A DNA stretch of 64,000 nt from Hermatobates lingyangjiaoensis. Its lineage: Eukaryota > Arthropoda > Insecta > Hemiptera > Hermatobatidae. Location: NCBI GenBank assembly GCA_026182355.1, contig JAPFBL010000361.1, positions 62,001 to 126,000 on the forward strand, read 5' to 3'. The notes under the pieces were generated by a model. That model saw nothing but the letters and a program-made list of their open reading frames with translations, ran no database searches and was not told where the DNA came from. Made by a program: the position numbers and the translations under genes. Within the stretch, counting starts at the first letter, position 1; each line of letters begins with the position of its first letter. This document shows positions 1,821 through 60,457 of this stretch, piece by piece.

Positions 1821-1918
1821 AGAATAATATATATAGTTAATGGGTTAGTTCCACTGAGGTTAGTAATATTAGAATTACTAATAATACAATCCGTCATACC
1901 TCGTAAAGTCTCTGAAAA

Positions 1919-1962
1919 GCTCGACCGGTTTCGGGTCCAACCTGGATCCCATCTTCAAGAGC
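1919..1962 (-). ncRNA. Hammerhead-ribozyme-like motif, family A
   Basis: Read on the minus strand: helix I strand GCTC, core TTGAAGA (position C3 is T), one extra T, helix II GGG(A)TCC/GGACCC, GAA, palindrome ACCGGT, C at the cleavage position, and helix I strand GAGC. Helix I gives 4 bp. The C3 change would weaken or abolish cleavage if this is a hammerhead. Confidence 0.5.
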
Positions 1963-2037
1963 ACCTAACTGACTGTGAATGTTATTTTCCTATAACCTAC
2001 CAATATATATCATCTACATTCAGTTAGTCAGTTAGAT

Positions 2038-2080
2038 GCTCTTGAAGATGGGATCCAGACGGACCCGAAACCGGTCGAGC
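2038..2080 (+). ncRNA. Hammerhead-ribozyme-like motif, family A
   Basis: Plus-strand partner of the motif at 1919-1962, with the same layout: GCTC, TTGAAGA, T, a GGG(A)TCC/GGACCC stem, GAA, ACCGGT, C, GAGC. It differs from its partner in the helix II loop. Confidence 0.5.
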
Positions 2081-2141
2081 TTTTCAGAGACTTTACGAGG
2101 TATGACGAATTGTATTATTACTAATTCTAAGAATAATATAT

Positions 2142-3267: not shown

Positions 3268-3328
3268 CTTCTAAGGTATTAGAATTAGTAATAATACATT
3301 CCGTCATACCTCGTAAAGTCTCTGTAAA

Positions 3329-3371
3329 GCTCGACCGGTTTCGGGTCCGCCTGGAACCCATCTTCAAGAGC
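3329..3371 (-). ncRNA. Hammerhead-ribozyme-like motif, family A
   Basis: Minus-strand motif with helix I GCTC/GAGC, core TTGAAGA, a stem-loop, GAA, palindrome ACCGGT and C. Helix II reads GGGTTCC/GGACCC here, one base different from the other copies. Confidence 0.48.
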
Positions 3372-3690
3372 ACCTAACTGACTGTGAGTGTTGTTTTCCT
3401 ATAACCTACCTATATATAGTATTTACATTGTGTAATCAGTGTTGTGTGTGTAGGTAATTTTTTTTTTTTATTTCTTTAATTGCTATATTTTTTTCTTTTT
3501 TCTTTTCTTTTTTCTTTTCTTTTTTTTTTCTTTTTTCTTTAAAGAATATAAATTTAAAGAATATAAATATAAGCAATTAAAGAAATAAAAAAAAAAAAAA
3601 AAAATTACCTACACACACAACACTGATTACACAATGTAAATACTATATATAGGTAGGTTATAGGAAAACAACACTCACAGTCAGTTAGGT

Positions 3691-3733
3691 GCTCTTGAAG
3701 ATGGGATCCAGGCGGACCCGAAACCGGTCGAGC
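3691..3733 (+). ncRNA. Hammerhead-ribozyme-like motif, family A
   Basis: Plus-strand partner of 3329-3371 with intact helix I (GCTC/GAGC), core TTGAAGA, bulged helix II GGG(A)TCC/GGACCC with loop AGGC, GAA, palindrome ACCGGT and C. Confidence 0.5.
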
Positions 3734-4027
3734 TTTACAGAGACTTTACGAGGTATGACGGAATGTATTATTACTAATTCTAATATTACTAACCTCAGTG
3801 GAACTAACCCATTAACTATATTCTTCTAAGGTAGTATATTTGTGACCAGCCAATCATCATATGCCATACCTCAGCACTCCTGATGATCTTTCCGATAATA
3901 GTTTCTTATCGGCAGAATATGGCGATTCTCTTAACCAAGTCTCTCCTCTAGCAATTCCATTTCGGGCATGAGAAGAATGTGTGCTCCACGGGCATTCGGA
4001 TGTAAGCACAATAAATAATAACTATTG

Positions 4028-4170
4028 TATGGTGAAAAGCTAATGAAATGGTCTTCACATATAACAAATTAATCCTATAAACAACGTGTTTGAAATGCGT
4101 AGTGTTGTTTATACAATTAAATTTTTATATGTGGAGACCATTTCATTAGCTTTTCACCCTGCAATGAGTA
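4028..4170. mobile_element. Palindromic family F element, decayed
   Basis: The arms around GGTGAAAAGCTAATGAAATG and its complement match the ends of family F elements at 57.3-58.8 kb. The centre (4083-4120) holds a decayed ribozyme-like motif (GTTTGAAATGCG), without a convincing core. Confidence 0.6.
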
Positions 4171-4218
4171 AATACCACATAATAACTGATTGCGCTACGT
4201 TAGAAATAATAACTACCA

Positions 4219-9612: not shown

Positions 9613-10173
9613 ACATCTGAATCATAAAAGAAACATGACTTGCGCAACGACAAAATAGTTCTAAATTCATTAAAGCTAATAAACTAGTCGTTATGTGCCT
9701 CTAACTCTTTACTTTTATTTTTTTCAGGTAACAATTAAGAAATCTTATAAGAATAACTGGGCGGACTAGTTCAGGTAAGAAGAGAAAAACTTATCACTCT
9801 TATAAGAAATGGGAAGAGGGTTTTTTGACGATGACATGTTACATATATTCTTATAACTTTTAAGATTTTTTTATATATTTCTAAATAAATACAGTGGGTA
9901 GATCATGATGACTTGTTCATTTCATAAGTAGCTCAAATTCAAAAAAGGTGTGAGCACTCCTGGTTTAAGGTGATATCTCTTTCTTTCGAGAAAACTAATT
10001 TCTGAACAGTAACATAGAAAACACAACTATTGTAAAATATATTCAAAAAAAAAAAAGTATGCTCAAGATAATCAGTATTTTGATGACTTCATATATTGCC
10101 TTCCAATTTTCCTTTACTTAAACTTATTCGAGCAATTAAAATTTGAAGTGTAGAAAGTAGAATTGTTTATACA
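9613..10173. other. AT-rich non-coding sequence
   Basis: No gene or recognised repeat. Confidence 0.5.
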
Positions 10174-12344: not shown

Positions 12345-13170
12345 TTTTGTTGAAGCTTTCTAATATACATACTTACGTGTTCATCTGTCAGGATATAAAT
12401 ATACTTACATATAATGTGATTGTACAACAGATATGTTTTGAACGTATGACAAACTGTTACAGAGTAACTATTGAACTCTGTACAGTCACTAACTACCTTT
12501 CTGCTTTGAAGACTTACATATAATACTCTTGACTAATAGGACACATAAGTGTTACATATAATGTATTGATACAACATGATTGTTTTGTGACTAGTAGGAC
12601 AAATGACAGTAATATTCAAGGCTCCGATATCATACTAAGTGCTACCTTTTTCTTTTAGAGACTTACTATAATACTCTTATACATAGGCATAGCTACATAT
12701 AATGTATTGTACAACATGATATGTTTTTGACTACGTAGGACAAACTGGACGAGGTCAATATTCAAGGCTCCGATATCATCACTAAGTGCTACCTTTCTTC
12801 TTTTAGCAGACTTACATATAATGACTCTTGACCTACATAGGACACATAAGGCTTACATATAATGTATTGTACAACATGATATGTTTTTGACTACGTAGGA
12901 CAAACTGGACGAGGTCAATATTCAAGGCTCCGATATCATCACTAAGTGCTACCTTTCTTCTTTTAGCAGACTTACATATAATGACTCTTGACCTACATAG
13001 GACACATAAGGCTTACATATAATGTATTGTACAACATGATATGTTTTTGACTACGTAGGACAAACTGGACGAGGTCAATATTCAAGGCTCCGATATCATC
13101 ACTAAGTGCTACCTTTCTTCTTTTAGCAGACTTACATATAATGACTCTTGACCTACATAGGACACATAGA
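12345..13170. repeat. 160-bp tandem repeat, three near-identical units plus decayed ones
   Basis: The unit starts GGCTTACATATAATGTATTG and includes TCCGATATCATCACTAAGTG. It recurs with exact 160-bp spacing (12851, 13011), preceded by diverged copies back to about 12345. The last units are almost identical, which suggests recent local duplication. An 85-residue minus-strand frame over this region is repeat-derived. Confidence 0.9.
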
Positions 13171-13422
13171 GTAGGGCTAAAGGTCAAGATAGCACCGATA
13201 GAATCCTCTTGCGTCTTCTCCACCTTCCTCTTGTAGGTATCCTGTTTCACCCAACACCGGTGACCTATATCTTACATGTACATGTAAGATTCTTCGCTAT
13301 GAATGTTTTATAGTAAAAAGCCGGCTTTGAGTAATGGCTAATTATTAATATATTATTATTATTATTATACCTAAATGGAACATTATATATTATATAGCAA
13401 ATAAGTATAATATTATGTTTAC

Positions 13423-13960: not shown

Positions 13961-14101
13961 AAGTCAATTAAATCACATCTAAAATTCAAATCGCTCATGG
14001 ATAAATTAAAAACCCAACTTTTCAAAGTGTGTTTTTTTAATTTTTCTATTTTTCTTTGTCCACATTAAACTTTATATATATATATGAAAATGGGAAAACA
14101 A

Positions 14102-14143
14102 GACCAAGATCTTTCAACCGTAACAAGCGGTCTTTGTCAGTTG
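14102..14143 (-). ncRNA. Hammerhead-like motif, family B, decayed core
   Basis: On the minus strand, helix II GACCG/CGGTT, GAA and palindrome AGATCT are intact. The core reads CTGACAA (conserved G8 replaced by A) and helix I is lost, so this copy is predicted inactive. Confidence 0.45.
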
Positions 14144-14153
14144 GGTTTTAGAC

Positions 14154-14194
14154 TCTGATTTTAGATCTTAGTCTTGTTTTCCCATTTTCATATT
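14154..14194 (+). other. Family B motif with helix II deleted
   Basis: GACTCTGA is followed at once by TTTTAGATCTTAGTC. Helix I, the first core bases, the helix III palindrome and the other helix I strand remain, while the stem-loop and GAA are missing. Flanking sequence (TTGTTTTCCCATTTTCA) matches the intact copy at 14278. Confidence 0.55.
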
Positions 14195-14277
14195 GTGGTT
14201 TGATGATCATTGATTGTATTTCACGTGTTTATGTGAAATCTTTATATATATATATAAAACCCAACAGTTGAGTTTTT

Positions 14278-14320
14278 GACTCTGACGAAGACCGCTTGTT
14301 ACGGTTGAAAGATCTTAGTC
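14278..14320 (+). ncRNA. Hammerhead-ribozyme-like motif, family B, intact core
   Basis: Helix I is GACT (14278-14281) with AGTC (14317-14320), 4 bp. The core is CTGACGA (14282-14288), followed by an extra A (14289). Helix II is GACCG/CGGTT (14290-14294 with 14302-14306). GAAA spans 14307-14310, palindrome AGATCT 14310-14315, and T at 14316 is the predicted cleavage nucleotide. Every conserved hammerhead position is present apart from the one-base insertion before helix II. Confidence 0.62.
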
Positions 14321-14451
14321 TTGTTTTCCCATTTTCATATTGTGGTTTGATCACTGATTGTTATTTCACGTATTTATGTGAAATCTTTAGATATATATAT
14401 ATATACTTTAACAAATAGGAAAGAAACAGAGAATGTCACTACAGAAACTCA

Positions 14452-14485
14452 CTTCAATATTTCGACATCCGTCGTCATCAGGAAG
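14452..14485 (-). ncRNA. Hammerhead-ribozyme-like motif, family C, intact core
   Basis: Minus strand: helix I CTTC/GAAG (4 bp), CTGATGA, extra C, helix II GAC/GTC with loop GGAT, GAAA, palindrome ATAT, T as cleavage nucleotide. It lies just beyond a (TA)n tract. Confidence 0.58.
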
Positions 14486-14589
14486 AAGAGTACGAAGTAC
14501 TAACCTTGAGAAGCAAACCGCAACTGATATATATATATATACATAAATATTGATAAAAGTATCGACCGTGGAGAATGAAAACTAAAGTT

Positions 14590-14915
14590 TATCGGGACTC
14601 GGTCAGTTTTTCAGGTTCAAATTAAACTCTCATTGCCAACGTTTCGGTTTTTATTTAAAACCTATTTGATAGGCATAATATAAAATTTTGAAACAGAAAA
14701 ACTGAGTTCAGTGCCAGGTGTTCATTCAAACTAGACAGTTGTTATTAAAATCCACAGACTATATTTTTCTAGTAAAAAATCTTTAATGTAATATTTAGTT
14801 TTTCTGTTTCAAAATTTTATACTTCTGCCTATGAAAAAAGGTTTTCAATAGAAGCCGAAAGTTGGCAAAGAGAGTTTAATTTGAACCTAAAGAACTGACC
14901 TAGTCCTTTAATTAT
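14590..14915. mobile_element. Inverted-repeat element with decayed motifs (family K)
   Basis: Arms at about 14590-14710 and 14795-14915 are reverse complements. Each carries GCC...GAAACGTTGGC or a close variant (14646-14690 minus, 14826-14872 plus). Helix I GCC/GGC, helix II and palindrome ACGT are recognisable, but the CTGANGA core has become TATGAAA-like. Confidence 0.55.
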
Positions 14916-15027
14916 GTAGACATATATATTATATATACTAATTAAATGTAACGGTCCAGCGGACTTTTATATAAAAAATTTAAATAAATGAAACGAAGGT
15001 AGCACACAGATAGACAAGAATAACTCA

Positions 15028-15060
15028 CTTCTATATTTCGACGATCGTCGTCATCAGGAG
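15028..15060 (-). ncRNA. Hammerhead-ribozyme-like motif, family C
   Basis: Minus strand: CTGATGA, extra C, helix II GACGATCGTC, GAAA, palindrome ATAT, A. Helix I has only about 2 bp, weaker than the copy at 14452. Confidence 0.5.
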
Positions 15061-15119
15061 GCGAAGAGTCCCGCAGGAAGTCAGGGCTGGTTTCACCTCC
15101 TGATGATGCCTCTCTTATC

Positions 15120-15153
15120 TCTCCTGAAGACGGTTCAAACCAAAAATTAGAGA
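15120..15153 (+). ncRNA. Hammerhead-like motif, D-related
   Basis: Helix I TCTC/GAGA (4 bp), core CTGAAGA, extra C, helix II GGTT/AACC, then AAAAATTA where conserved G12 is replaced by A, with palindrome AATT and A. The core change predicts loss of activity. Confidence 0.42.
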
Positions 15154-15597
15154 CTGTATAAAATCAAATGATGGACTGATTGTTTAAATAATAACAGACA
15201 TATAGACGAGATCCGTATTTTTTCACCCATAATCTTTTAATGGAGATCTTCATCTCTAATGTTCCATTTCAGTTGTCATATTGGCTAGTAGCAATGAAGT
15301 AGATTCAATTACTATAATCCTATAATTACTATAATAGCATCTTTGATAGTGCAATCGGAAGGTTATTTACCTTAGGGTAATATCCCAGCTCCTTTCAGAA
15401 AACTGGGATTTCAAAACGTTAAGGTAGAATATATCGACTTCGGTTATTTTTTTAGTGTCGTATTTATTATTTATTTATTTATTTTATTGAGGCTGATTAT
15501 AGTGCTGCGTCCTAAGAACTATTGTACTTTCCCCCCTTCTTTACTATAGTACTCCAGTTAGCTTCAACCTCAATACCTTCAACTAGTATTTTTACTG

Positions 15598-15895
15598 AAT
15601 AAACTAGTAAAATTTATTCAGACATGAAGCTCAGCACTTTTGCTGGGTCCAAAGGTAAAAGCTCTTCTGTAGTCCCGATGCACCTGCCTCTGTGTAGCAT
15701 AGTGGCTTGACAATCAGCCAGCAGGTGCAACGATGTTTCTTCCTCTACCTTGTAGAATCTGCACAAACCATCATTGATAATGCCCATTCTTCGCAAATGC
15801 CATTAAGTTTGCAGTGACACGTTAAAATCCTTAGATTATTCCTGCCCCTTTCCATACAATACAAGATTTGCCTATTCTCAAACTTATTGAGAAGT
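15598..15895 (-). pseudogene. LINE 3' coding remnant (RNase H C-terminal region)
   Basis: The minus strand encodes the family-typical stretch CRF-x3-EEETSLHLLADC, followed by EELLPLDPAKVL and a stop. Upstream in another frame is LTCHCKLN, resembling the TGHC-LN segment of arthropod LINE RNase H domains. Frame breaks separate the parts and most of the element is absent. The downstream sequence AAACTAGTAAAATTTATTCA recurs at 17578-17597, presumably another 3' end of the same element. Confidence 0.7.
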
Positions 15896-16737
15896 ATCTT
15901 TGATTTTTTGTGTCCTTAAAGAGAATCCTAGTATTGCTTACTATTTTTCCTTTGGTATTGTAGCTCAGCCTTGCCGAATGCATGATGCATCTTCTCCTGT
16001 TGACTATGGTTGTCGAAATATTGGAGTTTTCGTTGGTGATTTTCTCTCATCTTTTGAACTGAAATCATTATCATTATATTCTTTAGATTTTACATCTTCT
16101 TTTTGACTATTGCCAGGTTCATTAGATTCACTTTTTCATATTGAAAAGAAAACTAAACTAAAAGCATGTTTAGCACCATCAAACGGGTCTTACTGATACG
16201 CCGCAGAATTCATTATTCCAAACTCGCTAGACAATGGGTCTAGTGCCAGAAACACCTGTATTTTCAAATCTTTTACTTCTTACTGCAACTCTAATTAATC
16301 CTTTCTCTCAATAACATTTTCTGAAGTTTTTTTTTTTAAAAAAAACTCTTGATCCTTCAGATTCTAAATCATCTTTCCAATTGTAGCTGTTACCAGTTCA
16401 AGTCTTGGCATTGAAACCTTCTTTACTGGTTTAAACTTATAAATAACATAAGTACTTATCACATCGTTCATCCTAAAATAATCTAAATGCTCCTAGTATT
16501 AGTATTTCTATTAATAACTCCTTTTTACTGCCTATGAATAAAGTTTAAATAAAAACAGAAATGTAGGTATTTTTAGAGTTTAATCGAACCCGGAATACTG
16601 CCTGAGTCCCCTATTTATTTTATTACCATAGTTTTTTGATCTAACTCTGAATTATTTTTTTCATTGTTCATATATTATATATATATATATATATTGTAAA
16701 AGTTGGAAGCCAATCCTTCATTAAAACACTATATCTG
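15896..16737. other. AT-rich non-coding sequence
   Basis: No gene supported. Contains a (TA)n tract at about 16671-16695 next to the following element. Confidence 0.5.
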
Positions 16738-16845
16738 TTAAATGAACCCCTATTTGGCTTGTATCTTTTCTTGACACATTTCTCCAGTTCGGAATTCCGT
16801 TCCTCGTCTCTTCATTAAAACATAAAGCTTCATCACCAATTGGTA

Positions 16846-16884
16846 GTCGACATGTTTCGAATGTACCACATTCATCATCAGGTC
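16846..16884 (-). ncRNA. Hammerhead-ribozyme-like motif, family H
   Basis: Minus strand: CTGATGA, extra T, helix II GAATGT/ACATTC with loop GGT, GAAA, palindrome ACATGT, C. Helix I is GAC/GAC with one mismatch, whereas the partner copy has paired GTC/GAC. Confidence 0.55.
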
Positions 16885-16979
16885 AATAATGAGAATAATA
16901 GTAGGATTGTTGGTTGCAACCAACCTACCAAATTGTTGGTTGGTAGGTAACCAATAATCCTACTATTATTCTCATTATT

Positions 16980-17018
16980 GTCCTGATGATGAATGTGGTA
17001 CATTCGAAACATATCGAC
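16980..17018 (+). ncRNA. Hammerhead-ribozyme-like motif, family H
   Basis: Helix I GTC/GAC, core CTGATGA at 16983-16989, extra T, helix II GAATGT/ACATTC, GAAA, ACATAT (one mismatch in the palindrome), C at 17015. Confidence 0.55.
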
Positions 17019-17137
17019 TAGCAATATTGGTGATAAGCTTTGTAGTTTTAATGAAGAGACGAGGAAGGAATTCCGGAAACTGGAGAAATTGTGTAAGAAA
17101 CAGATACAAGGCAAATATGGGGCGTTATTTAACAATT

Positions 17138-18590
17138 TATATATATATATAGTATCATATATATATATACAAAATAATTTCGTAGTGATTTTTTGTGTTT
17201 CCTTTTCACTAAAATTTTCGTTAAGATATCTTGTTTCCGTTGTATGTTTTATTAAACAATATATATTAGAAATTAGTCAATCTTCCAGGTGTAAATCAAA
17301 CTTTGAAAACTTACGGTATGGTTTCAGTTTAAATTTTAGTGCAAACCATTTACACACAAAAAAAATAAAATGAATCTATACTAGTTTTTTAATTATACAT
17401 ATATCAAAAGTTTTAAAGTCGCAACAACAAAAATATAACAAATATTTTAAAAGCCGTAACTTTGTGTATATGATTGTTGATGATTGATTGTTTTGTCTTG
17501 TATTGTAGACATAAGGAATACCTAAAAATAAGCTTACATAAAGAGAATTTCAAAGTTGAAAATCTAAAGAAATAAAAACTAGTAAAATTTATTCAGACAT
17601 GAATGTACGATTTTTTGTGATTGTAATTAATTTTGTGAGTAATACATACAAGCCTTATACCTGCTATGGGCCTGTACGTATATACACGGGTTGTTCCACG
17701 ATATTATGTTTCAATTTGTTCATTCGATTTTAAATAATCTCTTTTTTTCGTCTAATTGGATTCAGATCGAATTTTTTCATATACCCGTAAACATCTACTA
17801 AGTCAGAGGTTAAGAAGAACATCAGAAAAAGCACTAAAATTATATATTCAATTAAACTCTATAAAACACAAATATTAACAAAAGAATTTAATTCTTTTTT
17901 TTTTCAATAAAAATGTTAAAGTTTCATCCTCTTAAATATAGAGTTAAAACAGAACGGACTTTATAATATTACTTGAAATTCCAATCTTTATGACTTCCAA
18001 TAACGTTTTGAAATTTAATTTCACAGGTCAACCAATTTTTGTTTGTTTTTTTTTTTCGTTCGTGGTTGGTTCATTCACAATAATTTTCATTTGTTGTGTA
18101 AAGAATCATTAAAATGATTATTTCCTTTCCGTCAGTTCCTTCTTTACTCAACCATAACTGGGATATAACGACCTTTAAAAATTTTGTAATAAAACATAAG
18201 AGGAACCGTGACAGCAGAACACTAGATTTAATAACAAGTTTGTTAAAAGGAGGAGTAAGAAGATTTAAAAAATAATTTGCTACTAAAAATTATTGTGAAA
18301 TAATTTTTTTCATTAGGTGAAATTGTTTAAACAATTACAGCATATTTTTTAATTAGTAAACTAAAATAGCCTACACTAACTTTAATATAATGGAACAGAC
18401 AGCTGTTTCATAGGTTCTTGGACACAAAAGACTAAATTAAATTAGCCTTTCCTGATATCTTTATAACTAGTGTAATGGTTGTAGTGCATTATAGAAACTC
18501 ATACAATTTTATATTTTATGTAACTTTATATATATATAAAATAAAATAAATTCAAAACGAAGGAAACACACAGAAAGACACAGACATAAC
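17138..18590. other. AT-rich non-coding sequence
   Basis: No gene recognised. Contains TA tracts near 17140-17170 and 18526-18538, and a LINE 3'-end-like word at 17578-17601. The 126-residue open frame at 16993-17373 is partly the family H element and is not a gene. Confidence 0.5.
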
Positions 18591-18594
18591 TCAC

Positions 18595-18621
18595 ATTGAT
18601 ATTTCGACCATCGTCGTCATC
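18595..18621 (-). other. Truncated family C motif
   Basis: Minus strand ATGATGACGACGATGGTC then GAAATATC. Conserved C3 is lost where the motif meets a (TA)n tract. Confidence 0.45.
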
Positions 18622-18687
18622 ATATATATATATATCAGCTCAAAAACGAAGAAAAGCAACACACAGAGAAAGAGACACGCTTACAAA

Positions 18688-18718
18688 CTCAAATTTTCGG
18701 ATGATCCGTCTTCAGGAG
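18688..18718 (-). ncRNA. Hammerhead-ribozyme-like motif, family D, intact core
   Basis: Minus strand: helix I CTC/GAG, CTGAAGA, extra C, helix II GGA/TCC with loop TCA, GAAA, palindrome AATT, T. Confidence 0.6.
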
Positions 18719-18790
18719 AAAATAGAAAGGGTTGCCGGGACGGTTTCCTGCCGTTGTGTTTCCGGCGTGCTTGGTCGCCCTTTCTATTTT

Positions 18791-18821
18791 CTCCTGAAGA
18801 CGGATCATCCGAAAATTTGAG
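18791..18821 (+). ncRNA. Hammerhead-ribozyme-like motif, family D, intact core
   Basis: Helix I CTC (18791-18793) with GAG (18819-18821), core CTGAAGA 18794-18800, extra C, helix II GGA/TCC, GAAA, palindrome AATT, T at 18818. Only 31 nt long, the most compact family here. Confidence 0.6.
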
Positions 18822-18939
18822 TTTGTAAGTGTGTCTCTTTCTCTGTGTGTTACTTTTCTTCGTTTTTGAGCTGATTTGCGTCCAGTTTGGATCGTTTTTT
18901 TCGAATTTTGAATGATATATATATACTCGTATATATATA

Positions 18940-19060
18940 CGAGTTCGAGACTAACAAAGAGCAACACACAAAGTAGGGAAACACACTTACAGACTCAAAT
19001 TTTGAGTCTGTAAGTGTGTTTCCCTACTTTATGTGTTGCTCTTTGTTAGTCTCGAACTCG
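18940..19060. repeat. 121-bp near-perfect palindrome
   Basis: Two ~60-bp arms with a one-base centre and one visible mismatch. The arms are the sequence found downstream of D motifs (GAGTCTGTAAGTGTG), joined head to head inside what would be helix III. It is preceded by a TA tract at 18915-18940. Confidence 0.9.
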
Positions 19061-19095
19061 TATTGTGTCCAGTTTGGATCGTATTTTGTTTTATC

Positions 19096-19126
19096 AGTGA
19101 ATATATATATATATATATATATATAT
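19096..19126. repeat. (TA)n microsatellite
   Basis: Uninterrupted alternating AT next to a family B motif. Confidence 0.95.
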
Positions 19127-19129
19127 CAA

Positions 19130-19172
19130 GACTAAGATCTTTCAACCGTAACAAGCGGTCTTCGTCAGAGTA
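19130..19172 (-). ncRNA. Hammerhead-ribozyme-like motif, family B, intact core
   Basis: Minus strand: helix I ACT/AGT, CTGACGA, extra A, helix II GACCG/CGGTT, GAAA, palindrome AGATCT, T. Confidence 0.58.
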
Positions 19173-19256
19173 AAAAACCCAAGTGTCAGCTGTTTGGGAA
19201 TTGGGTTTTTGAACGACTCATAGTCGTTGTCTGCCTGCGGAGCGACTCGTTTCTAT

Positions 19257-19290
19257 CTTCCTGATGACGAGTACATCGAAATATAGTAGT
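19257..19290 (+). ncRNA. Hammerhead-like motif, family C, weak helix II
   Basis: Core CTGATGA 19261-19267, extra C, GA-GTACA-TC in place of helix II, GAAA, palindrome ATAT, A. Helix II is reduced to about 2 bp. Confidence 0.4.
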
Positions 19291-19371
19291 GAGCTTCTGT
19301 TTCATTTCTGAGTGTTCTTTGTGTCAATATAGTTTATTTAGTTCGTGGAATCGTTTCATTTTAATTGGTTG

Positions 19372-19373
<2 letters not shown>

Positions 19374-19431
<58 letters not shown>
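19374..19431. repeat. (TA)n microsatellite
   Basis: Long alternating TA tract with one interruption. Another lies at about 19698-19719. Confidence 0.95.
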
Positions 19432-20397
19432 CCGATGATGACGAAAAAACGGTCGTTAGACAAATAACAATTAAAAACAGAAGTGACACATAAACAGAAA
19501 CACACTTGAAATTGACTCCTTGTCATAAAAGTGCGTAGTACCTCGCGTTCGAATCAACTCTCTCGTGAGTTAGACGCCTACGTCGAAATAAATTGAAGTG
19601 CAGTTCTTCTGTGGTTTCTGATTTTCCCAATGCTGTACGGTTATGTGAAATATGAAGTATTTTAGTGTCTTCTTGTTCTTATTCTATGAGTTAAAGTTAT
19701 ATATATATATATATATATAGAAGATATTCAAATATTTCTTATGTCGAATGAATACAAGATAATAATTATCATTTTAGCAATTTAAGTACTATAAAAACAT
19801 ATGAGAATGAGTAGTAAAAAAGATAATAACTTTTTAATACTTATAAATTTGTTCATGTTTCAGACTGTTGTCATATTTTATTAAGGTTCAGGATTAATTG
19901 ATTAATTAAATCATGTTTCATACTAATTCCTTTGTTAAAAACCTCAATTGTGCAATTCAACATTCACATATTGTATTCAATTTCAAATAAATCACTCCGA
20001 TATTCTTCAAGCTCACAGATTTGTATATTTTTTTAGATGTAAACCTGAAGAAGAACACTAAGTTTCAGTTAAACTTTTTTTTCCTCTGTGGAAAAGGAAT
20101 TTTTGAATTTCCCTAAAATGTGTAAATATCATAATTTAACAGATTGCAGAAGTAAAGAAAGAAATAAAGTTATTTAAAATTTAAGTGATCTACAAGAAAA
20201 GAGGAGATGGAATTATTTGTGAAAATGTATTAATTTGACAATTCGTTAATTTCGTTTCAATGATAATTCAGTTGTTTTCAGTACAAGGAATATACGATAA
20301 TCAGTAAGAGGAGACATGATACAATCATTTTCAATACTGTGGGAATAAATTGTTTTTCGTTATATAAATGGAAATTAGGATAAACGAAAGTACAATC
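19432..20397. other. AT-rich non-coding sequence
   Basis: No gene recognised. A decayed CTGAAGAAGAACACTAAG word at 20047-20064 resembles families F and G but lacks the remaining motif. Confidence 0.45.
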
Positions 20398-22977: not shown

Positions 22978-24484
22978 GTAAGAGTCCACACTTCTTATAA
23001 TTCATTAGCGTAGACATTTCTTCAGTCCTTTTGAAAAATACTGTACTATGTTCTAGGCGAGTTAACTTTTATACTACCTTATAATATCACAAAAAAGCAC
23101 TTTATAGAAATGAGTATTTGTTCTTTTAATAAGGTATCTTCTAATCGCTTCTACCTACCGTGTGTATATCTCCCATACATTTGTTATTGAAAAGTATTAA
23201 AAAATTTCGAAAAAATATTTTCTCATCAAAAAGTCATTTTAAATCTCTAAAGTTGAACAGGAATAATCAAAAATATAATATTTAATCTTTTTTTCAAAAT
23301 TTAATTTTGTTCGGAAGATAAAGCCTTATGATAATTTTTCTGAATTAGATTTTATTTATAATATTATGTTAATATTCGAAAATATTTACATTGCTTAAAA
23401 AAAAATTCAATATTTTCACCACCTTCGTTATTAAACATTAAGTTATATTAAAATGTTGAAAATCTAAGGACCCTTCTACTTTCCTGTGTCGTTGCAAGAT
23501 TTCTAAATTTTCCAGATAGCTCAATGAGATAAATTTTTATTTTTTTTTTCATTTTCCCAATTTAGAAGTTTTAAAGTAAAAAGTTCGTAACTGTTTTCTT
23601 TATTACATGTAAGTATTAATGTCCAAGCTTTATTAAATTGTTAGATTTAACAGCCCCGATTACAAATTTCTCTTGCGACAGATTAATTTTTGGAGTATTC
23701 ATAAATCGAATGCAAGTGGATTATAAAGAATTTTAAGAGGAGTTCTAACAAGTATAGGGACCTTTTATCTGTAACTCGTAAAATAAGGATCAGGTTCCGA
23801 AAATCCAGGGCTTAATTTTATGGGGCCGTAAATTTGAGTGAATGCATTGTAAGCTATTAAGAACATGTTTACCAGGGGTTTCATCCTTTTTTTATTTCCT
23901 TATAAAATGGAAGTAAAGGTTTCTGATTAATCAAAGCCCAGAAATATTAAAGTCTTAAGGGAGAAGAGTGAATACGGTAGTTAAAATCGATTGGTTCTGG
24001 AAAAACCCTAAACCTCCTTTAAATTATTAAACATTTCTCTTTTTTTTTTTGTTTTGTTTTATTATAAAACATTAAATGTGGTATTTTTGGGTTTATAATC
24101 AGTTGTTGATATTAATATTTATATTGTTTTTTTTAAGCTTGATGTTAAGCTTACCGTGTCTTGTGAAGAGTCAGTTAAATTGAACAGTTCAGTTCCATAA
24201 GTCTGTATTAATGACTATTATGGCATTAAATACAGCTGTATAGATATTTATTTTTCTATAAAATTATTTATTTTATTAAAAGAATAGTCAGTTGAATCAA
24301 TATCAATATGACATAAATATATTGATATCACTTATTAGTGTATGGGATTTAGTGTCGATAATAAAGCAATGTGTGACACTACATTGTTATCTTAGCACTA
24401 AAGGTGCATATATCATCCAATGTGTTTACTGGTAAGGAGGATGATAATTCTTGACTTTGATTAATGAATCTGTTTGTCTTTCAG
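22978..24484 (+). other. snail intron
   Basis: A 1,507-bp GT-AG intron (GTAAGA donor, TTTGTCTTTCAG acceptor). AT-rich, with no transposon recognised inside, in contrast to the surrounding repeats. Confidence 0.85.
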
Positions 24485-25410
24485 AAGGGAGTGATGACAA
24501 TTCAGAACCCGAGAACCTGAGCACGAAGCCGGAAGACCTCAGTAAGAGTCCGACCTTCGGAGTGGCAATGATTACGTGTAAGAAGGAGGAAGAAGAGGGC
24601 TTTGTGCCGATGACGAGCGGTGGTCACTTGGTGGCCAAGCCACGACCTCTGGAGCCGTTGAGCTTGAACGCTCCTGCCTACCACCCTGCCTACCCTCAGC
24701 CCGTTCACCCCTACCTGCAGCCCTGTCACTACCCGGAGCTCTACCGGCCGCTGCCCACCTACCCCAAGGCGCTTTATATGCCGCCCTACTCCGTGTCGGA
24801 GCCCCAGGGGCTCTCACCTCTGTACCCTCCCTTCAGCCCTGCCCAACCCGAGGACCTCTCCTCTCCTGGCTCTGGATCTTCATCCCCTACCAGTAAATCA
24901 CCAAGACCTTCCAGAGAATCTCCGCGCTATCAGTGTTCTTTCTGTGGCAAGTCCTACAGTACCTATTCAGGACTTAGCAAGCATCAGCAGTTTCACTGCT
25001 CAGCCAACGAAGACTCCTCCGCTAAGAAGACATTCTCATGCAAGCACTGCGACAAGGTATACGTCTCCTTGGGAGCGCTCAAAATGCACATCCGCACACA
25101 CACCCTTCCTTGCAAGTGTAAACTGTGCGGTAAAGCATTCTCCAGACCTTGGCTTCTTCAGGGCCACATTCGCACGCACACAGGAGAGAAACCGTTCACC
25201 TGCCCTCACTGTAACCGGGCCTTTGCCGACCGTTCTAACCTCCGAGCCCATCTGCAAACGCACTCCGACGTCAAGAAGTATTCCTGCCCCACCTGCTCCA
25301 AGACCTTCTCAAGAATGTCCCTCCTGACGAAGCACTGTGACGGCGGCTGCCCTGGCATCCCGTCCATGTCCGATACTCCACTTTACCATCAAGAGATCCT
25401 CTCCTCGTAA
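24485..25410 (+). CDS. sna: Snail-family transcription factor, coding exon 2 (zinc fingers)
   Basis: Zinc-finger transcriptional repressor of the Snail family, acting in the nucleus on CAGGTG-type E-boxes. In arthropods the family controls mesoderm, neuroblast and epithelial-mesenchymal programmes. The middle region has PENLS (56-60) and two PEDLS motifs (63-67, 169-173), matching the PxDLS consensus for the CtBP corepressor. A Tyr/Pro-rich linker follows, then a Ser-rich stretch. Five fingers follow: four C2H2 at about residues 198-218, 233-253, 259-279 and 287-307, and a C2HC finger at 315-336 ending HCDGGC. The words [19 protein letters not shown] and [17 protein letters not shown] are Snail hallmarks. 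Finger 1 has STYSGLSKH. Stop TAA is at 25408. It is intact, with a higher-GC coding style than its surroundings. Which Snail-family paralogue it is cannot be settled here. Confidence 0.96.
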
Positions 25411-27977: not shown

Positions 27978-28101
27978 CTCTAGAGTAAGACAAGAAGTCA
28001 TTTTTAAATCATTAGTTGTGCAATCCGTAATTGTGTGGTATTTACTCATTCTGAGGTAAAATGGATAAACCAACAAAAGTCTCCACACAAATGAAGTTTT
28101 A

Positions 28102-28140
28102 TTCAACGCGTTTCGAACACTTTGTGTTCATCATCAGGAA
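28102..28140 (-). ncRNA. Hammerhead-ribozyme-like motif, family E, intact core
   Basis: Minus strand: helix I TTC/GAA, CTGATGA, extra T, helix II GAACAC/GTGTTC with loop AAA, GAAA, palindrome ACGCGT, T. Confidence 0.62.
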
Positions 28141-28242
28141 GACACCAAGGATGTGGTACTGACGGGTTGGTCAAGTGAAAACAAGTTGGTCAAGTGAGTT
28201 GTTTTCACTTGACCAACCCGTCAGTACCACATCCTTGGTGTC

Positions 28243-28281
28243 TTCCTGATGATGAACACAAAGTGTTCGAAACGCGTTGAA
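28243..28281 (+). ncRNA. Hammerhead-ribozyme-like motif, family E, intact core
   Basis: Identical to its partner on the opposite strand. Core CTGATGA 28246-28252, palindrome ACGCGT 28272-28277, predicted cleavage after T at 28278, helix I GAA 28279-28281. Confidence 0.62.
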
Positions 28282-28347
28282 TAAAACTTCATTTGTGTGG
28301 AGACTTTTGTTGGTTTATCCATTTTACCTCAGAATGACAAGAAGTCA

Positions 28348-31832: not shown

Positions 31833-31870
31833 GCACTGAAGATGTTTACCAATATAGATGAAACGTCGGC
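31833..31870 (+). ncRNA. Hammerhead-ribozyme-like motif, family I
   Basis: Core CTGAAGA 31836-31842, extra T, helix II GTTTA/TAGAT (wobble pairs), GAAA, palindrome ACGT, C at 31867. Helix I has two outer G-C pairs and one mismatch next to the core. Confidence 0.45.
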
Positions 31871-31945
31871 TTAAAGGTGTTGTATTGCTTGAAGCTAACT
31901 AGACCAAACTTCGATAAAAAAGAAATATAGTAGTTTAATAATATG

Positions 31946-38608: not shown

Positions 38609-38680
38609 CTACTACTACTAGGTAAGCCACAAGGCTATTCTGGACTCCACGATGAGATGTAGTGAAGTTCCTCAAAAATA

Positions 38681-41269: not shown

Positions 41270-41297
41270 CACGTCGGACCGATTTCGTAGGTAATGT

Positions 41298-46035: not shown

Positions 46036-46190
46036 CTCCTGCCTTTTCCGGCTTGCTTGGTCTACCACTCTCCTTTCTCCTGAAGATGGATTATCCGAAA
46101 ATTTAAGTTAGTAACTATCTTTTTCTGTGTGTTACTATTCTTCGTTTTTGAACTTGTTTTTGTCCAGTTTGGTTTAAAGTGAATAAATAA
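46036..46190 (+). mobile_element. Solitary family D element fragment
   Basis: CTCCTGCCTTTTCCGGCTTG through GTCCAGTTTGG matches the right half of the D element at 18750-18890, with one motif at 46077-46110 and no inverted partner. Confidence 0.7.
46077..46110 (+). ncRNA. Hammerhead-like motif, family D, diverged
   Basis: Core CTGAAGA 46080-46086, extra T, helix II GGAT/ATCC, GAAA, palindrome AATT, T. Helix I is weakened (CTC against AAG). Confidence 0.48.
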
Positions 46191-54256: not shown

Positions 54257-54400
54257 TTTCCTGCCGTTGCGTTTCCGGTGTGCTTGGTTCCTCCTTAAGA
54301 CGGATTACCGAAAATTTGAGTTAGTAAGTGTGTCTCTTTCTCTAAGTGTTACTATTCGTCGTTTAACTTGTTTGTATCCAGTTTGGATCTACTTTACGAT
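54257..54400 (+). mobile_element. Solitary family D element fragment with decayed motif
   Basis: TTTCCTGCCGTTGCGTTTCC through TGTATCCAGTTTGGATC matches the D element. The motif at 54291-54320 reads CTTAAGA (core mutated), GGATTACC, GAAA, AATT, T, GAG. Confidence 0.65.
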
Positions 54401-54862
54401 TTTAAATTAATAATAAATATTATTATATTATATAATAATTTTATATACATATAATAATATAAACTTTAATTTGTTTCTATTTCACGGTGGATACTTTTAT
54501 CAATATTTATAATAATATAATTATGTATTATTTACACTATGGTATACATAGTATACCATACCATGGCTTACTAAGTTACAGATAGGAAAATACTAATAGC
54601 TTAATTTTAAGAAGTTTTTATCGAGTTTAATTGCAATGCTACACTGGCTAAAGGTTGTTTATAGTTAATAATATATAATAGTTAATGTTTTGAGACCTGC
54701 AGGGCCTATTTTCCTATTTCCCTAGCAATGTTTGTGAGACTATTGTGTTATAGTATGAGTAACTGTACCTTCATCCATAACAAGTCATAATAATTTTACA
54801 AATAGCCTTTCTTTGTTCGCAAATCTACTATTATATTTGAGCACTAACCAGCAACAGATTGA
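54401..54862. other. AT-rich non-coding sequence
   Basis: Contains the near-palindrome TGGTATACATAGTATACCAT near 54540. No gene. Confidence 0.45.
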
Positions 54863-55845: not shown

Positions 55846-55882
55846 AACCTGAAGAAGAATGCTAAGTGTTCGAAACGTTGTT
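55846..55882 (+). ncRNA. Hammerhead-ribozyme-like motif, family G, intact core
   Basis: Helix I AAC (55846-55848) with GTT (55880-55882), core CTGAAGA 55849-55855, extra A, helix II GAATGC/GTGTTC (with wobbles, loop TAA), GAAA, palindrome ACGT, T at 55879. Confidence 0.58.
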
Positions 55883-55887
55883 CGTTT

Positions 55888-56110
55888 CACATTTTGAACC
55901 GTCTTAAGGAGAGAAAAGAGAGGGAAACCAAGCACACTGGTACAGAGACCAGTACCAGTTCGCTTGGTTTCCTTTTCGTGTCTCTCCTAAAGACGGTTCA
56001 AAATGAAAATCAGAGACTGTAAATGTGTGTTTTAAATTTCTCTGTGTTTCTTCATCTACGTTGAACTTTATTTGTCCGTTTCGGATCGTATTTTCATCGA
56101 AAAAGTGTTA
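55888..56110. mobile_element. Inverted-repeat element related to family D
   Basis: Arms CATTTTGAACCGTCTTAAGG and its complement CCTAAAGACGGTTCAAAATG bracket AACCAAGC...GCTTGGTT and a central GGTACAGAGACCAGTACC. The ribozyme cores are decayed (CTAAAGA). The right flank ends in a GGATCGTATTTTCATCGAAA terminus. Confidence 0.65.
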
Positions 56111-56525: not shown

Positions 56526-57267
56526 TTGATCAAAAGTTAGTTTCACTTATCCGGTGGAATACATTTCTATTTCACAAGTGTATTAGAAAGCAAGCTTCAA
56601 AGGTATTATTTTGCGCTTTTGAATTTTCAAGCCTATGTCAATATCGTCGATTATTTTCAGTGCTTAAAAAGGCTAGAACAATTTGTTAGGGAATTGCAAA
56701 CATTTTACCTTTCACTGCTATCTAAATATAGATTGAAGTCAATCTAGTGTTCTTGTTGAAACTGGATGTGTCATTTATTATCATATATTAGAGGTCAAAA
56801 ATCAATTTGTATAGAAGACGGTGAGAGTGTTATGGGTGTATAGAAGCAGGCTGACGAGATTCTTGTAATTACAAGTCTTGGCTTTTGTAGCCTGCGATCA
56901 CACAGTACTCTCTCGGCTCTAGGTTAATCGGTCCTTTTAAATTTAATAACTTCTTCCATGTTAATGGGAAGACCTGAGTCCGTGTTATTAAACTCTCCTT
57001 CTCCAACACAAGACTTCTAATTTCTTCTGCCTAAATGCCACGGAGTCTCTGTAATAACAATACAACAGTTCAGGTCGTTACACTTGGGTTTCCTTCTTCT
57101 TCTGTCGATTTCATCGAATCATTCCAATCACAACATCAAATTGATTCATTTATCGCAAATTTATGTTTCATTTTCGTTATTAAATATTAATAAAAATTTT
57201 GAAACAGTTTATTGTAACATAATTTTAAGACTATCGTTCAAAATCAACAATTGTCAATAATTATAGG
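56526..57267. other. Non-coding sequence
   Basis: No gene recognised. A mixed-composition stretch at 56815-57080 has a short palindrome CTTGTAATTACAAG near 56861. Confidence 0.45.
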
Positions 57268-57470
57268 GTAAAACGTTAATGAAAAGGTCTCCACATATAA
57301 AAATTTAATAATATAAACAACGCGTTTCAAACAAGTAGTGTTCTTCCTCAGGCATTAACTAAGGGTGTCTGTGATACAACCCACATTGTCGAGACTTTTT
57401 CATTAGCTTTTTACCCTACAATGAGTAAATACCACAAAATAACTTATTGCACGTTAGAACAGTCAATAAA
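57268..57470. mobile_element. Family F palindromic element with decayed motif
   Basis: Left arm GGTAAAACGTTAATGAAAAG, right arm CTTTTTCATTAGCTTTTTACC, end AGTAAATACCACAAAATAAC. The minus-strand motif at 57317-57353 reads CTGAGGA, A, GAACACTACTTGTTT, GAAA, ACGCGT, T. Helix II is weakened. Confidence 0.7.
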
Positions 57471-58170: not shown

Positions 58171-58313
58171 AACAATAATAGTCCATTAGTCCTAACCATC
58201 TCAACAAATATTCTAGAAAATCTCCAAAGACGTCTGAAGAGAAAGTGACCAAGAGACTTATTAGTGTGGATTATTCTAGTGACATGTATATTTAATCTAA
58301 TTTTTATACATTA

Positions 58314-58790
58314 TAGGGTAAAAAGCTAATAAAATAGTCTCCATACGTAGAAATTTAATAGTATAAACAACACGTTTCGAACACGTAATGTTCTTCTTGA
58401 GGCATTAAATAAAAAAATACAATGTCATCAGAGAGTTATCTATAGTATAAAGTAAATAGTACTACAAACATGATAAATGTTTATCATATACATATATCAT
58501 GTGAATAAATATATATCATGTGAGTATTATAAATAGTACTCACACTTGGGTATGTTCTCTTCCATATTTTATTTTATTTTGTACTATTTACTTTATGCCA
58601 TAGATAACTCTCTGATGGCATTGCATTTTTTTATTTAATGCCTGAAGAATAACAATACGTGTTCGAAACGCGTTCGTTATACTATTAAATTTCTATATGT
58701 GGAGACTATTTCATTAGCTTTTTGGCCTACAATGAGTAAATACCACATAATAACTGATTGCACTACCTTAGAACTAATTTAAATCTTATT
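58314..58790. mobile_element. Family F palindromic element
   Basis: Long arms (about 58318-58480 and 58585-58755) with decayed motifs at 58367-58403 (minus, CTCAAGA) and 58640-58676 (plus, CTGAAGA but helix II mutated to AACAA). End AGTAAATACCACATAATAAC. Confidence 0.72.
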
Positions 58791-59237
58791 TTCCACGCTA
58801 GGAAGTACAGTTACATTATTTCTTCCCTCTCCTCCGTGTTGACGAGTGTATAGTCTTTCATCATTGTCACTCGTCTATGTTCTTGCGACTATGTAAAATA
58901 AAGTTAAAAAAAAACTTATGAATGGGAAATATTTTTAATGTTTTGATTTCCCTTTGATTCAATTGTAAAGACAAAAGAAACAGTAAACTTCAAAAGCACT
59001 TTCTTTTATTTAGAATGTATTTGAAGTTTCTACGTATGATAATGCTACTACTTAATTTTTGGTTGCATTTCAGGTCTACTTGAAGATGGACAACGTTCGA
59101 AACGAGTGAAACAACTCCAACTACAGTCTACGAGGTAAGACCATATCATTTACTAATGCTAGTTCAACTGAATTCTGTTGTACCAATTTTCGTTAATAGT
59201 CATATATAAATGATTAATTTACCAATTTACCAATATA
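58791..59237. other. AT-rich sequence with a decayed ribozyme-like motif
   Basis: At 59076-59108, CTTGAAGA, T, GGAC/GTTC stem, GAAACGA resembles family A layout with a broken palindrome. No gene. Confidence 0.4.
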
Positions 59238-60186
59238 ATCAGGTATTAACCAGCATTTTCTTGGTTAATACCTGAAGAAGAACACTACGTGTTCAAAACG
59301 CATTGTTTACACCAGTAGCTTCCAAACTTCATGTTTACTAAGACTCCCTTAAAAATATTTAATCATTTGGCGCCACCCCCCCCCCTCCCCCTCCTAAAGA
59401 TTTCATAAAATAAAAACACAAATATTTTTACTCTTATGAAATTTATTCATACAAACTAATAGAAAACGATATTTTATTATTGTTTTTAATGAGATGGATG
59501 TACTTGTCTATTAGTACAAAGTTTATCAAATCTTGGTGTTTGTGACTATATAGCTACTCGTAGCTTTTTTTTTACAACTAAACGAGCTTGATATTTGGAT
59601 TTCATTGCAACCAAGGCAGAAAATCATTTTTTACATAGAAAACTTTAGCAATAATTTGGAAAATTGTTCACTGTGACTAATTTTTGCGGCTCCCTTTAGA
59701 TTAGTAAGCGCCTACCAGTTTAGAAAACGCTGGTTTATACTGTTAAATTATATTTTTAAATAAGAAATAAAAATTACAAAATTTTGATTTTCTGAACAAG
59801 GCGCCACATAAAGATGGTTAAGAAACACTGTTCTATATTATATAAATATATAATATAATATTTATAATATATGTATGAGTAAAATAAAATATAATATTAA
59901 TTATAATTAATTAATTAATTATAAATTAATTATATTATTATTTAAGTAATAATATACAAGAGTAAAAATGTTTGTGTTTTTATTTTATGAAATCTTCAGG
60001 GGGGCGCCAAAGTATATCATATATATACCAAATTATATCATAAAATATAATGATTAAATATTTTTAATGGAGGCGTAGTAAACATCAAGTTTGGAAACCA
60101 CTAGTGTAAATAAGGCGTTTCGAACACGTAGTGTTCTTCTTCAGGCATTAACCAAGAAAATGCTGGTTAATACCTGATTATATTAA
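59238..60186. mobile_element. Large inverted duplication combining family F and a hAT-like end
   Basis: Arms at about 59238-59450 and 59955-60186 are reverse complements. Each runs from a family F motif (59270-59306 plus, GAAA mutated; 60111-60146 minus, palindrome broken) into a hAT-like terminus TTCCAAACTTCATGTTTAC and GGCGCCACC. The centre is AT-rich. Confidence 0.7.
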
Positions 60187-60457
60187 CAGCCTCCTGTGAT
60201 CTATAGAGTAAAAGAATCACGCTTTTCAAGTCATGACCTGATAGCAAAGTCGCCCATGTGTGACTTCCTGAAAGTGGAATAATTTAAAAACATGTACCTT
60301 GTTAGAATTACAGGGATTAGTAGAGAGAAATGAAGAAAGGTTATTGTCATTTTTCCTCGTATTGTGCTATTGATAACGTTGGACCAGTTCCTCACGACTT
60401 GGTCTTGAAGACGAAGGTATCCCAAACTTGTCTGATGACACCAGCAACAGTATACAT

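What the first reader, a model, noticed from the sequence alone, without database searches (positions are those of the whole stretch)
14278..19290. About nine unrelated-looking repeat families share one hammerhead-ribozyme architecture
Families A, B, C, D, E, F, G, H and I (for example 2038, 14278, 14452, 18791, 28243, 58079, 55846, 16980 and 31833) all follow one order. It runs helix I strand, CUGANGA (N = U, A, C or G), one extra base, a stem-loop, GAA plus a palindrome beginning with A and ending in U, a non-G base, and the complementary helix I strand. The stem sequences differ completely between families yet stay paired: GACCG/CGGUU, GAC/GUC, GGA/UCC, GAACAC/GUGUUC, GAAUGU/ACAUUC. Helix I covaries too: GACU/AGUC, CUUC/GAAG, CUC/GAG, UUC/GAA, AAC/GUU, GUC/GAC, GCUC/GAGC. 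Hammerhead motifs in Penelope-like retroelements are established; so many families in one 64-kb window with no visible reverse transcriptase is striking.
Basis: partly seen in the sequence, partly recalled or inferred. Interest (0 to 1): 0.93.

Follow-up and report, generated by a model that had tools for sequence, protein, structure and literature searches.

The report
Ribozyme-bearing mirror-image retroelement insertions
This stretch of a true-bug-like insect genome holds many short jumping elements that share little except a hammerhead self-cutting RNA motif, and many of them sit as back-to-back mirror-image pairs whose ends look like the work of a Penelope-type retroelement enzyme.

Summary
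The observation mostly holds. A strict hammerhead descriptor finds 8 sites (families B, C, D, E, G) against 0.06 per shuffled window. A looser one adds A and H (16 sites against 0.77). A's core is broken (UUGAAGA, 4 of 4 copies). F and I pass neither scan: F is supported by many copies, I is weak. E, F and G are relatives.

The surroundings explain the missing reverse transcriptase. The units are short noncoding insertions, often head-to-head inverted pairs. Of 11 same-family pairs measured, 11 carry a 37-53 nt "tail" on one arm only. Four have exact 12-bp target duplications; others sit in (TA)n tracts. This matches the published anatomy of Penelope-like element (PLE) terminal repeats, without a visible PLE gene. 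One insertion joins arms of families B and C, another probably C and D2, which favours two-ended priming on two RNAs over hairpin self-priming.

Best reading: terminal-repeat-only elements moved in trans by an unseen PLE. They are not filed as PLEs, because no intact RT-endonuclease ORF is present. Ribozyme activity is untested, no Rfam hammerhead model matched, and the host genome could not be searched.

The parts
1833..2129 (.). Insertion A1: head-to-head pair, HHR-like 1919-1962 (-) and 2038-2080 (+), core TTGAAGA; left arm carries the 37-nt tail
1821..1832 (.). Left 12-bp target duplication of A1 (AGAATAATATAT; right copy 2130-2141, identical)
3279..3821 (.). Insertion A2: head-to-head pair, HHR-like 3329-3371 (-) and 3691-3733 (+); right arm carries the 38-nt tail; exact 12-bp duplication TCTTCTAAGGTA at 3267-3278 and 3822-3833
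4025..4203 (.). Insertion P4 (F family): head-to-head pair truncated inside the HHR; right 39-nt tail; exact 12-bp duplication AAATAATAACTA at 4013-4024 and 4204-4215
14086..14242 (.). Insertion B1: head-to-head pair between (TA)n tracts, both HHR copies damaged; tail on the right arm (arm alignment only 27 columns)
14257..14390 (+). Single copy of B between (TA)n tracts; intact-core HHR 14278-14320
14407..14525 (-). Single copy of C flanked by the 17-bp direct repeat GATATATATATATATAC; HHR 14452-14485
14976..15160 (.). Probable two-family pair: left arm C (-), right arm D2 (+, GAA mutated to AAA); right border unclear
16695..17137 (.). Insertion H: head-to-head pair between (TA)n tracts, HHRs 16846-16884 (-) and 16980-17018 (+); 41-nt tail on the left arm (3 unmatched nt on the right)
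18539..18621 (-). Single copy of C between (TA)n tracts, 5'-truncated in the HHR core
18636..18914 (.). Insertion D: head-to-head pair between (TA)n tracts, HHRs 18688-18718 (-) and 18791-18821 (+); 41-nt tail on the right arm
18940..19100 (.). Insertion Dp: near-perfect palindrome of a D relative; one arm starts, by eye, within 0-3 nt of the predicted cleavage site; 40-nt tail on the right arm
19127..19374 (.). Two-family pair: left arm B (-, HHR 19131-19171), right arm C (+, HHR-like 19258-19290), with (TA)n outside and none between the arms
20036..20148 (+). Decayed F/G-type single copy with tail
28001..28335 (.). Insertion E: head-to-head pair, arms 100% identical over 137 columns, HHRs 28102-28140 (-) and 28243-28281 (+); 47-nt tail on the left arm; exact 12-bp duplication GACAAGAAGTCA at 27989-28000 and 28336-28347
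31833..31873 (+). Family I candidate: weak, innermost helix I pair mismatched, single copy, in neither scan
   Evidence: by inspection
46045..46172 (+). Single D copy, HHR 46077-46107
54257..54407 (+). Single D copy, HHR decayed, with tail
55846..55882 (+). HHR of family G
55890..56110 (.). D2 head-to-head pair abutting G
57261..57461 (.). Insertion F1: head-to-head pair, HHR 57316-57354 (-); 40-nt tail on the right arm; 8-bp duplication GTCAATAA
57718..58172 (.). Insertion F2: head-to-head pair, HHR 58078-58116 (+); 38-nt tail on the left arm; 12-bp duplication with one mismatch (CAATAATARTCC) at 57706-57717 and 58173-58184
58309..58773 (.). Insertion F3: head-to-head pair, HHRs 58366-58404 (-) and 58639-58677 (+); 39-nt tail on the right arm; decayed duplication (9 of 12)
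59228..60190 (.). Two F-type HHRs (59269-59307 +, 60109-60147 -) in the opposite, tail-to-tail arrangement around other repeat DNA

Best explanation
These are short, gene-less retroelements made of a Penelope-type terminal repeat (pLTR) with a minimal type I hammerhead and a 3' tail, inserted by the enzyme of a PLE encoded elsewhere in the genome. Proposed mechanism: the enzyme cuts both target strands about 12 bp apart, in AT-rich DNA or (TA)n. Each freed 3' end primes reverse transcription inside an element RNA. One end starts at the outer site, giving the tail, and the other at the inner site. The two cDNAs run toward each other and are joined head to head, sometimes from RNAs of two families. 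Shown by sequence: hammerhead architecture, paired arms, one-sided tails, target duplications, mixed pairs. Inferred: the PLE helper, the two-ended priming, and the ribozyme's role (RNA cleavage, perhaps as dimers, because helix III is a self-complementary 4-6-mer).
For: Strict descriptor 8 hits against 0.06; loose 16 against 0.77. The model built from E, F, G and H gives weak hits to held-out A, B, C and D copies. In that alignment 85% of cells pair, against 20-48% when partners are slid by 1-3 columns. Arms point head to head in 11 same-family pairs, and 11 of 11 have a 37-53 nt tail on one arm only; independent choice at each end would give this at most 1 time in 2048 (hand calculation). 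Exact 12-bp duplications at 4 insertions, 11 of 12 at a fifth; 6 of 2557 random placements outside the tandem arrays share a word of 12 or more (104 of 3000 with the arrays). 16 of 48 unit ends abut (TA)5+ tracts, random mean 0.11, maximum 3. The B-C pair: 60 bp at 95% identity to B, 155 columns matching C at E 2e-9, no (TA)n between the arms. Published PLEs show the same anatomy: inverted head-to-head pLTRs, a 31-bp tail on one of them, 8-10 bp duplications, AT-rich targets, and pLTRs that carried unrelated DNA in trans (PMC3846280). A purified PLE cuts and extends both strands and starts internally at two sites that bound the tail (PMC11167929).
Against: No PLE RT or GIY-YIG endonuclease is visible, but only 17 of 153 ORFs of 60 aa or more (7 of the 11 of 110 aa or more) were scanned with Pfam; they gave one weak zf-RVT fragment. 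The ORF that starts in stem II of H found no relative, though only proteins of similar length were eligible. The purified PLE showed no start-site difference between strands, which does not predict the 11-of-11 asymmetry. Rotifer authors saw no cross-mobilisation between PLE families (PMC3846280). Family A moved with a core change expected to harm cleavage. RNA dimer folding gives the textbook double hammerhead as best structure in 1 of 8 families (A) and a helix III duplex in one more (E). Unit borders in (TA)n were partly drawn by eye at the tracts.
Confidence: 0.72

Rival explanations
1. Hairpin self-priming: a single cDNA or antisense RNA folds back and primes its own copy, giving palindromic pLTR pairs, as proposed for rotifer Penelope elements.
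For: Some pairs are near-perfect palindromes (E 100%, D and Dp 98%). The authors of PMC3846280 favour self-priming for such palindromes.
Against: Arms of two different families in one insertion (B-C, and probably C-D2) cannot come from one folded-back template. In 6 of 11 pairs the arms differ by 7-14%, though age could explain that.
Confidence: 0.17
2. Foldback DNA transposons or MITEs: terminal inverted repeats cut and pasted by a transposase, with the hammerhead-like core a coincidence of their palindromes.
For: Inverted repeats plus fixed-length duplications are MITE-like.
Against: The outer ends are unequal by about 37-53 nt in 11 of 11 pairs. Single, unpaired copies exist (B, C, D). The two ends can belong to different families. 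The hammerhead core is shared across families whose ends differ.
Confidence: 0.06
3. Animal non-LTR retrozymes: noncoding elements that spread through small circular RNAs cut by type I hammerheads.
For: Noncoding, low GC, type I hammerhead, many families per genome (PMC7229834).
Against: Retrozymes are described as tandem repeats of about 150-450 bp, in invertebrates mostly with a stable helix III (PMC7761336). The HHR units here are single or inverted, and no hit lies in the tandem arrays that were shown.
Confidence: 0.1
4. The hammerhead shape is a relic or a protein-binding and reverse-transcription start structure, not a working ribozyme, kept because it guides insertion.
For: Family A, with the broken core in 4 of 4 copies, made at least two independent insertions (different 12-bp duplications). 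In the PLE studied in vitro, hammerhead mutants still insert, the RNA cleaves only with protein added, and no RNA-seq ends were found at the cut site (PMC11167929).
Against: In C, D, E-F and H the hammerhead is better conserved than the 50 nt downstream (81-89 v 59-60%, 91 v 74%, 80 v 53%, 95 v 85%), while in A it is not (90-97 v 90-100%); F shows little excess.
Confidence: 0.25

Closest known systems
EN-containing Penelope-like elements (Penelope/Poseidon; Adineta vaga Pen2a_Av, Anolis PAc)
   Same: Minimal type I hammerhead in the pLTR; head-to-head inverted pLTRs; a roughly 31-40 nt tail on one of them; short target duplication; AT-rich targets. Solo pLTRs, and pLTRs carrying unrelated DNA, are reported in rotifers (PMC3846280: passages and Discussion; PMC11167929: parts 1-2 of 4).
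   Different: No intact RT-endonuclease ORF here; short pLTR-like arms only; target duplications of 12 bp against the 8-10 bp quoted for A. vaga; arms of two families can share one insertion.
Small hammerhead variants associated with PLEs that cleave as dimers (Lunse et al. 2017; Cervera and de la Pena 2014)
   Same: Minimal hammerhead without a stable helix III. Only the titles were seen, in a reference list; both papers are not held.
   Different: Cannot be compared in detail; here helix III is an exact 4-6-nt palindrome in the representatives of 7 of 8 families.
Metazoan non-LTR retrozymes
   Same: Noncoding type I hammerhead elements. The coral Acropora millepora has 16 hammerhead families, counting minimal and canonical motifs together (PMC7229834: parts 1-3 of 6).
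   Different: Retrozymes are tandem repeats; these are single or inverted units.

Membership tests
Penelope-like element (EN-containing) | ORF with PLE reverse transcriptase and GIY-YIG endonuclease | tested here: not met
   No intact ORF of that size: apart from the Snail exon and its overlapping frame, the largest of the 11 stop-to-stop ORFs of 110 aa or more has 143 aa. 17 of 153 ORFs of 60 aa or more scanned with Pfam, so decayed RT pieces are not excluded.
Penelope-like element (EN-containing) | Minimal hammerhead in the terminal repeat | tested here: met
   (architecture only)
Penelope-like element (EN-containing) | Inverted head-to-head terminal repeats with an extra tail on one of them | tested here: met
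   11 of 11 same-family pairs measured
Penelope-like element (EN-containing) | Short target site duplication, AT-rich target | tested here: met
   Exact 12 bp at 4 insertions, 11 of 12 at one, weak at two (null); (TA)n for others
Type I hammerhead ribozyme | CUGANGA and GAA core, helices I and II, non-G at the cleavage site | tested here: met
   8 strict hits against 0.06 expected, in families B, C, D, E, G; H passes the loose scan; core not met in A, helix I short in F, mismatched in I
Type I hammerhead ribozyme | Match to Rfam hammerhead models | tested here: not met
Type I hammerhead ribozyme | Self-cleavage | not testable with these tools
   needs in vitro transcription
Metazoan non-LTR retrozyme | Head-to-tail tandem repeats carrying the hammerhead | tested here: not met
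   HHR units located are single or inverted; one search showed only the 20 largest of at least 60 direct-repeat families
Metazoan non-LTR retrozyme | Circular RNA of unit length | not testable with these tools
   no RNA data

The most novel reading that the evidence does not exclude
The window records a two-template, two-ended insertion reaction: each target strand primes its own element RNA, the two RNAs may belong to different families, and the enzyme always uses the outer start site on one strand and the inner site on the other. The elements are then a class of gene-less satellites of PLEs, and the self-complementary helix III is what brings the two RNAs together as a hammerhead dimer before insertion.
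Probability: 0.3. Interest if true: 0.78.

Novelty: new variant of a known kind. Interest (0 to 1): 0.56.

Why it matters
How PLEs insert, why their repeats come in mirror-image pairs and what their hammerheads do are not settled in the papers seen. This window gives short, countable insertions, several with exact borders. They show a one-tail rule (11 of 11) and at least one mixed-family pair, which help separate two-ended priming from self-priming. They include a mobile family with a broken core, which tests whether cleavage is needed. They also tie dispersed noncoding hammerheads to PLE-type insertion.

Tried and rejected
Rfam in four forms: no hammerhead. The matches listed are all below their families' gathering scores.

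Viral and prokaryote collections: 0 matches for an E/F pattern in both and a C pattern in viral contigs, as expected for insect DNA.

Protein search with residues 1-50 of the family H ORF: nothing.

First covariance alignment A1: misaligned by MAFFT and not used; replaced by A2, restricted to copies with a 6-bp stem II. One search did not recover family I or the C copies at 15051 and 18554, and 4 of its 16 weak hits (59077, 5399, 32105, 37589) and all 9 hits with E above 2 are not known units in the hammerhead sense.

Fold energies: no support. Of the measures, 'further pair types' did not exceed shuffles (180 of 500) and 'pairs changed on both sides' only weakly (44 of 500).

Cleavage site as the 5' end of arms: Dp and P4 each have one arm that, by eye, starts within 0-3 nt of the predicted cut. 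The other arms of the 11 pairs (22 arms in all) were not measured systematically, so this stays a lead.

Assembly artefact: judged unlikely, because several insertions have their own target duplication and the tails are unequal.

TSD null: 3.7% of 300 random placements scored 12 or more; one search shows that this comes mainly from tandem arrays (6 of 2557 outside them).

Rows dropped: five F rows with a wrong anchor (58408), and six rows comparing F59/F60 with other F copies, whose downstream DNA I judged unrelated (they read 83-93% in the HHR, 47-50% downstream). The four F rows kept show 83-95% (HHR) against 83-86% (downstream). In the tail count, the D2 pair (cut by G), the tail-to-tail F59 structure, the two mixed pairs and inverted repeats without an HHR unit were left out.
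Full report
WHERE WE ARE. The window is insect DNA. An exon at 24448-25410 encodes a Snail-type zinc-finger protein whose best named relatives are true bugs (Cimex, Apolygus, Ranatra, Rhynocoris, Nezara; 59-62% identity; two unnamed records reach 67-69%). No genome was available: the genome search was unanswered eight times.

THE MOTIF IS REAL. The strict hammerhead descriptor gives 8 hits; 100 shuffles average 0.06 with a maximum of 1. The looser scan gives 16 hits, 13 of them in named families, against a mean of 0.77 and a maximum of 4 in 60 shuffles. A covariance model built from nine E, F, G and H copies has 85% of cells paired against 20-48% for slid partners; helix II pairs in 94% of cells, helix I in 67%. 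Searched with filters off it lists 37 hits with E up to 5: its nine training copies, the identical twin of E at 28102, two further F copies, then 16 hits between E 0.06 and 1.8. Of those, 12 are known copies (C 14453 and 19258, F-type 20042, B 14279 and 19131, D 18688, 18791 and 46077, and the four A copies) and 4 are not (59077, 5399, 32105, 37589). The E-values, which are rough for this tool, would predict about two by chance. The last 9 hits are not family copies.

WHAT NEEDS CORRECTING. Family A reads UUGAAGA in 4 of 4 copies, a change at the conserved C3. A C3G change abolishes cleavage in the Anolis PLE hammerhead (PMC11167929); the effect of C3U here is inferred. Family I has a mismatch next to the cleavage site and F only two contiguous helix I pairs; neither passed the scans. 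E, F and G are relatives. Helix III is an exact 4-6-nt palindrome in the representatives of 7 of 8 families, too short to fold on itself, which suggests dimers. But the predicted best dimer is a textbook double hammerhead only for A, and a helix III duplex only for E.

THE SURROUNDINGS. Many units lie in inverted pairs with hammerhead 5' ends inward; single copies (B, C, D) and one opposite arrangement (59228-60190) also occur. For 11 same-family pairs (A1, A2, P4, B1, H, D, Dp, E, F1, F2, F3) the outer ends were compared. In 11 of 11, one arm carries an extra 37-53 nt (median 40) while the other has none (3 unmatched nt in H). A1 and A2 share inner and outer ends within 2 nt at different targets, and P4, F1, F2 and F3 share theirs within a few bases. 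Four insertions have exact 12-bp duplications (A1, A2, P4, E), F2 has 11 of 12, F3 9 of 12 and F1 8 bp. A shared word of 12 or more turns up in 6 of 2557 random placements outside tandem arrays. B, C, D, Dp and H units end in (TA)n: 16 of 48 unit ends abut a tract against 0.11 expected, with the caution that some borders were drawn at the tracts.

MIXED PAIRS. Between two (TA)n tracts at 19127-19374 the left arm is B (60 bp, 95%) and the right arm is C (66% over 155 columns, E 2e-9), joined 5' to 5' with no (TA)n between. A second, 14976-15160, joins C to D2; its right border is unclear. A template jump would give same-strand tandems, and a hairpin would give two arms of one family. Two cDNAs primed from the two target strands explain both the polarity and the mixture. 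Nested insertion is not excluded without an empty site.

COMPARISON WITH PRINT. [quoted passage not shown] Solo pLTRs, and pLTRs that carried unrelated DNA in trans, are reported; cross-mobilisation between families was not seen; the authors prefer self-priming (PMC3846280: passages and Discussion). Purified Anolis PLE cuts and extends both strands, starts internally at two sites that bound the tail without difference between strands, and inserts with or without an active hammerhead, which itself cleaved only with protein added (PMC11167929: parts 1-2 of 4). A review states that most minimal hammerheads in animal genomes are dispersed and that some map to pLTRs (PMC7761336 passages). Searches for inverted, microsatellite, nonautonomous, palindromic or head-to-head PLEs with hammerheads listed no title or abstract start that describes RT-less mirror pairs or mixed-family pairs. 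Those listings show no more than that, most subscription papers are not held, and the two key PLE-hammerhead papers are among the missing.

SELECTION ON THE RIBOZYME. Hammerhead against the 50 nt downstream: C 81-89 v 59-60%, D (with 46080) 91 v 74% and within the D pair 100 v 96%, E-F 80 v 53%, H 95 v 85%, F 83-95 v 83-86%, A 90-97 v 90-100%. So the excess is clear in four comparisons (C, D, E-F, H), slight in F, and absent in the broken-core family A. These are few and partly dependent comparisons.

VERDICT. The units work like PLE terminal repeats and were probably inserted by a PLE enzyme. They are not filed as PLEs because no intact RT-endonuclease ORF is present. The hammerhead is architecturally sound in most families, but its catalysis is unproven.

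Noticed in passing
24448-25410 (+): Exon of a Snail-family zinc-finger gene, closest to true bugs among named relatives.
   Followed up: partly
53379-53810 (-): Fragment of a Mos1-type mariner transposase (HTH_48).
   Followed up: no
41221-42964; 425-1174; 7547-9701; 12694-13173: Tandem arrays with units of 76, 25, about 124 and 160 bp; no hit of the hammerhead model lies in them.
   Followed up: no
10419, 20430, 33637, 38399, 38771, 47178, 60545, 62277, 63797: Dispersed roughly 150-240-nt repeat family with no hammerhead-model hit; one inverted pair at 38399-38881.
   Followed up: no
59228-60190: Two F-type hammerheads in reverse, tail-to-tail arrangement around DNA whose ends resemble hAT-type repeats (label recalled, not tested).
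   Followed up: partly
59077-59111 (+): Weak hammerhead-model hit (E 0.086) inside a possible small exon bounded by AG and GT (by eye).
   Followed up: no
15617-15802 (-): Weak zf-RVT match, likely a LINE remnant, near a decayed C-type copy at 15990-16047.
   Followed up: no
16846-17370: The two H arms differ by many single-base indels, and on the right arm a reading frame (16993-17370) starts inside stem II and runs through the arm; published PLE ORFs also begin at stem II.
   Followed up: partly
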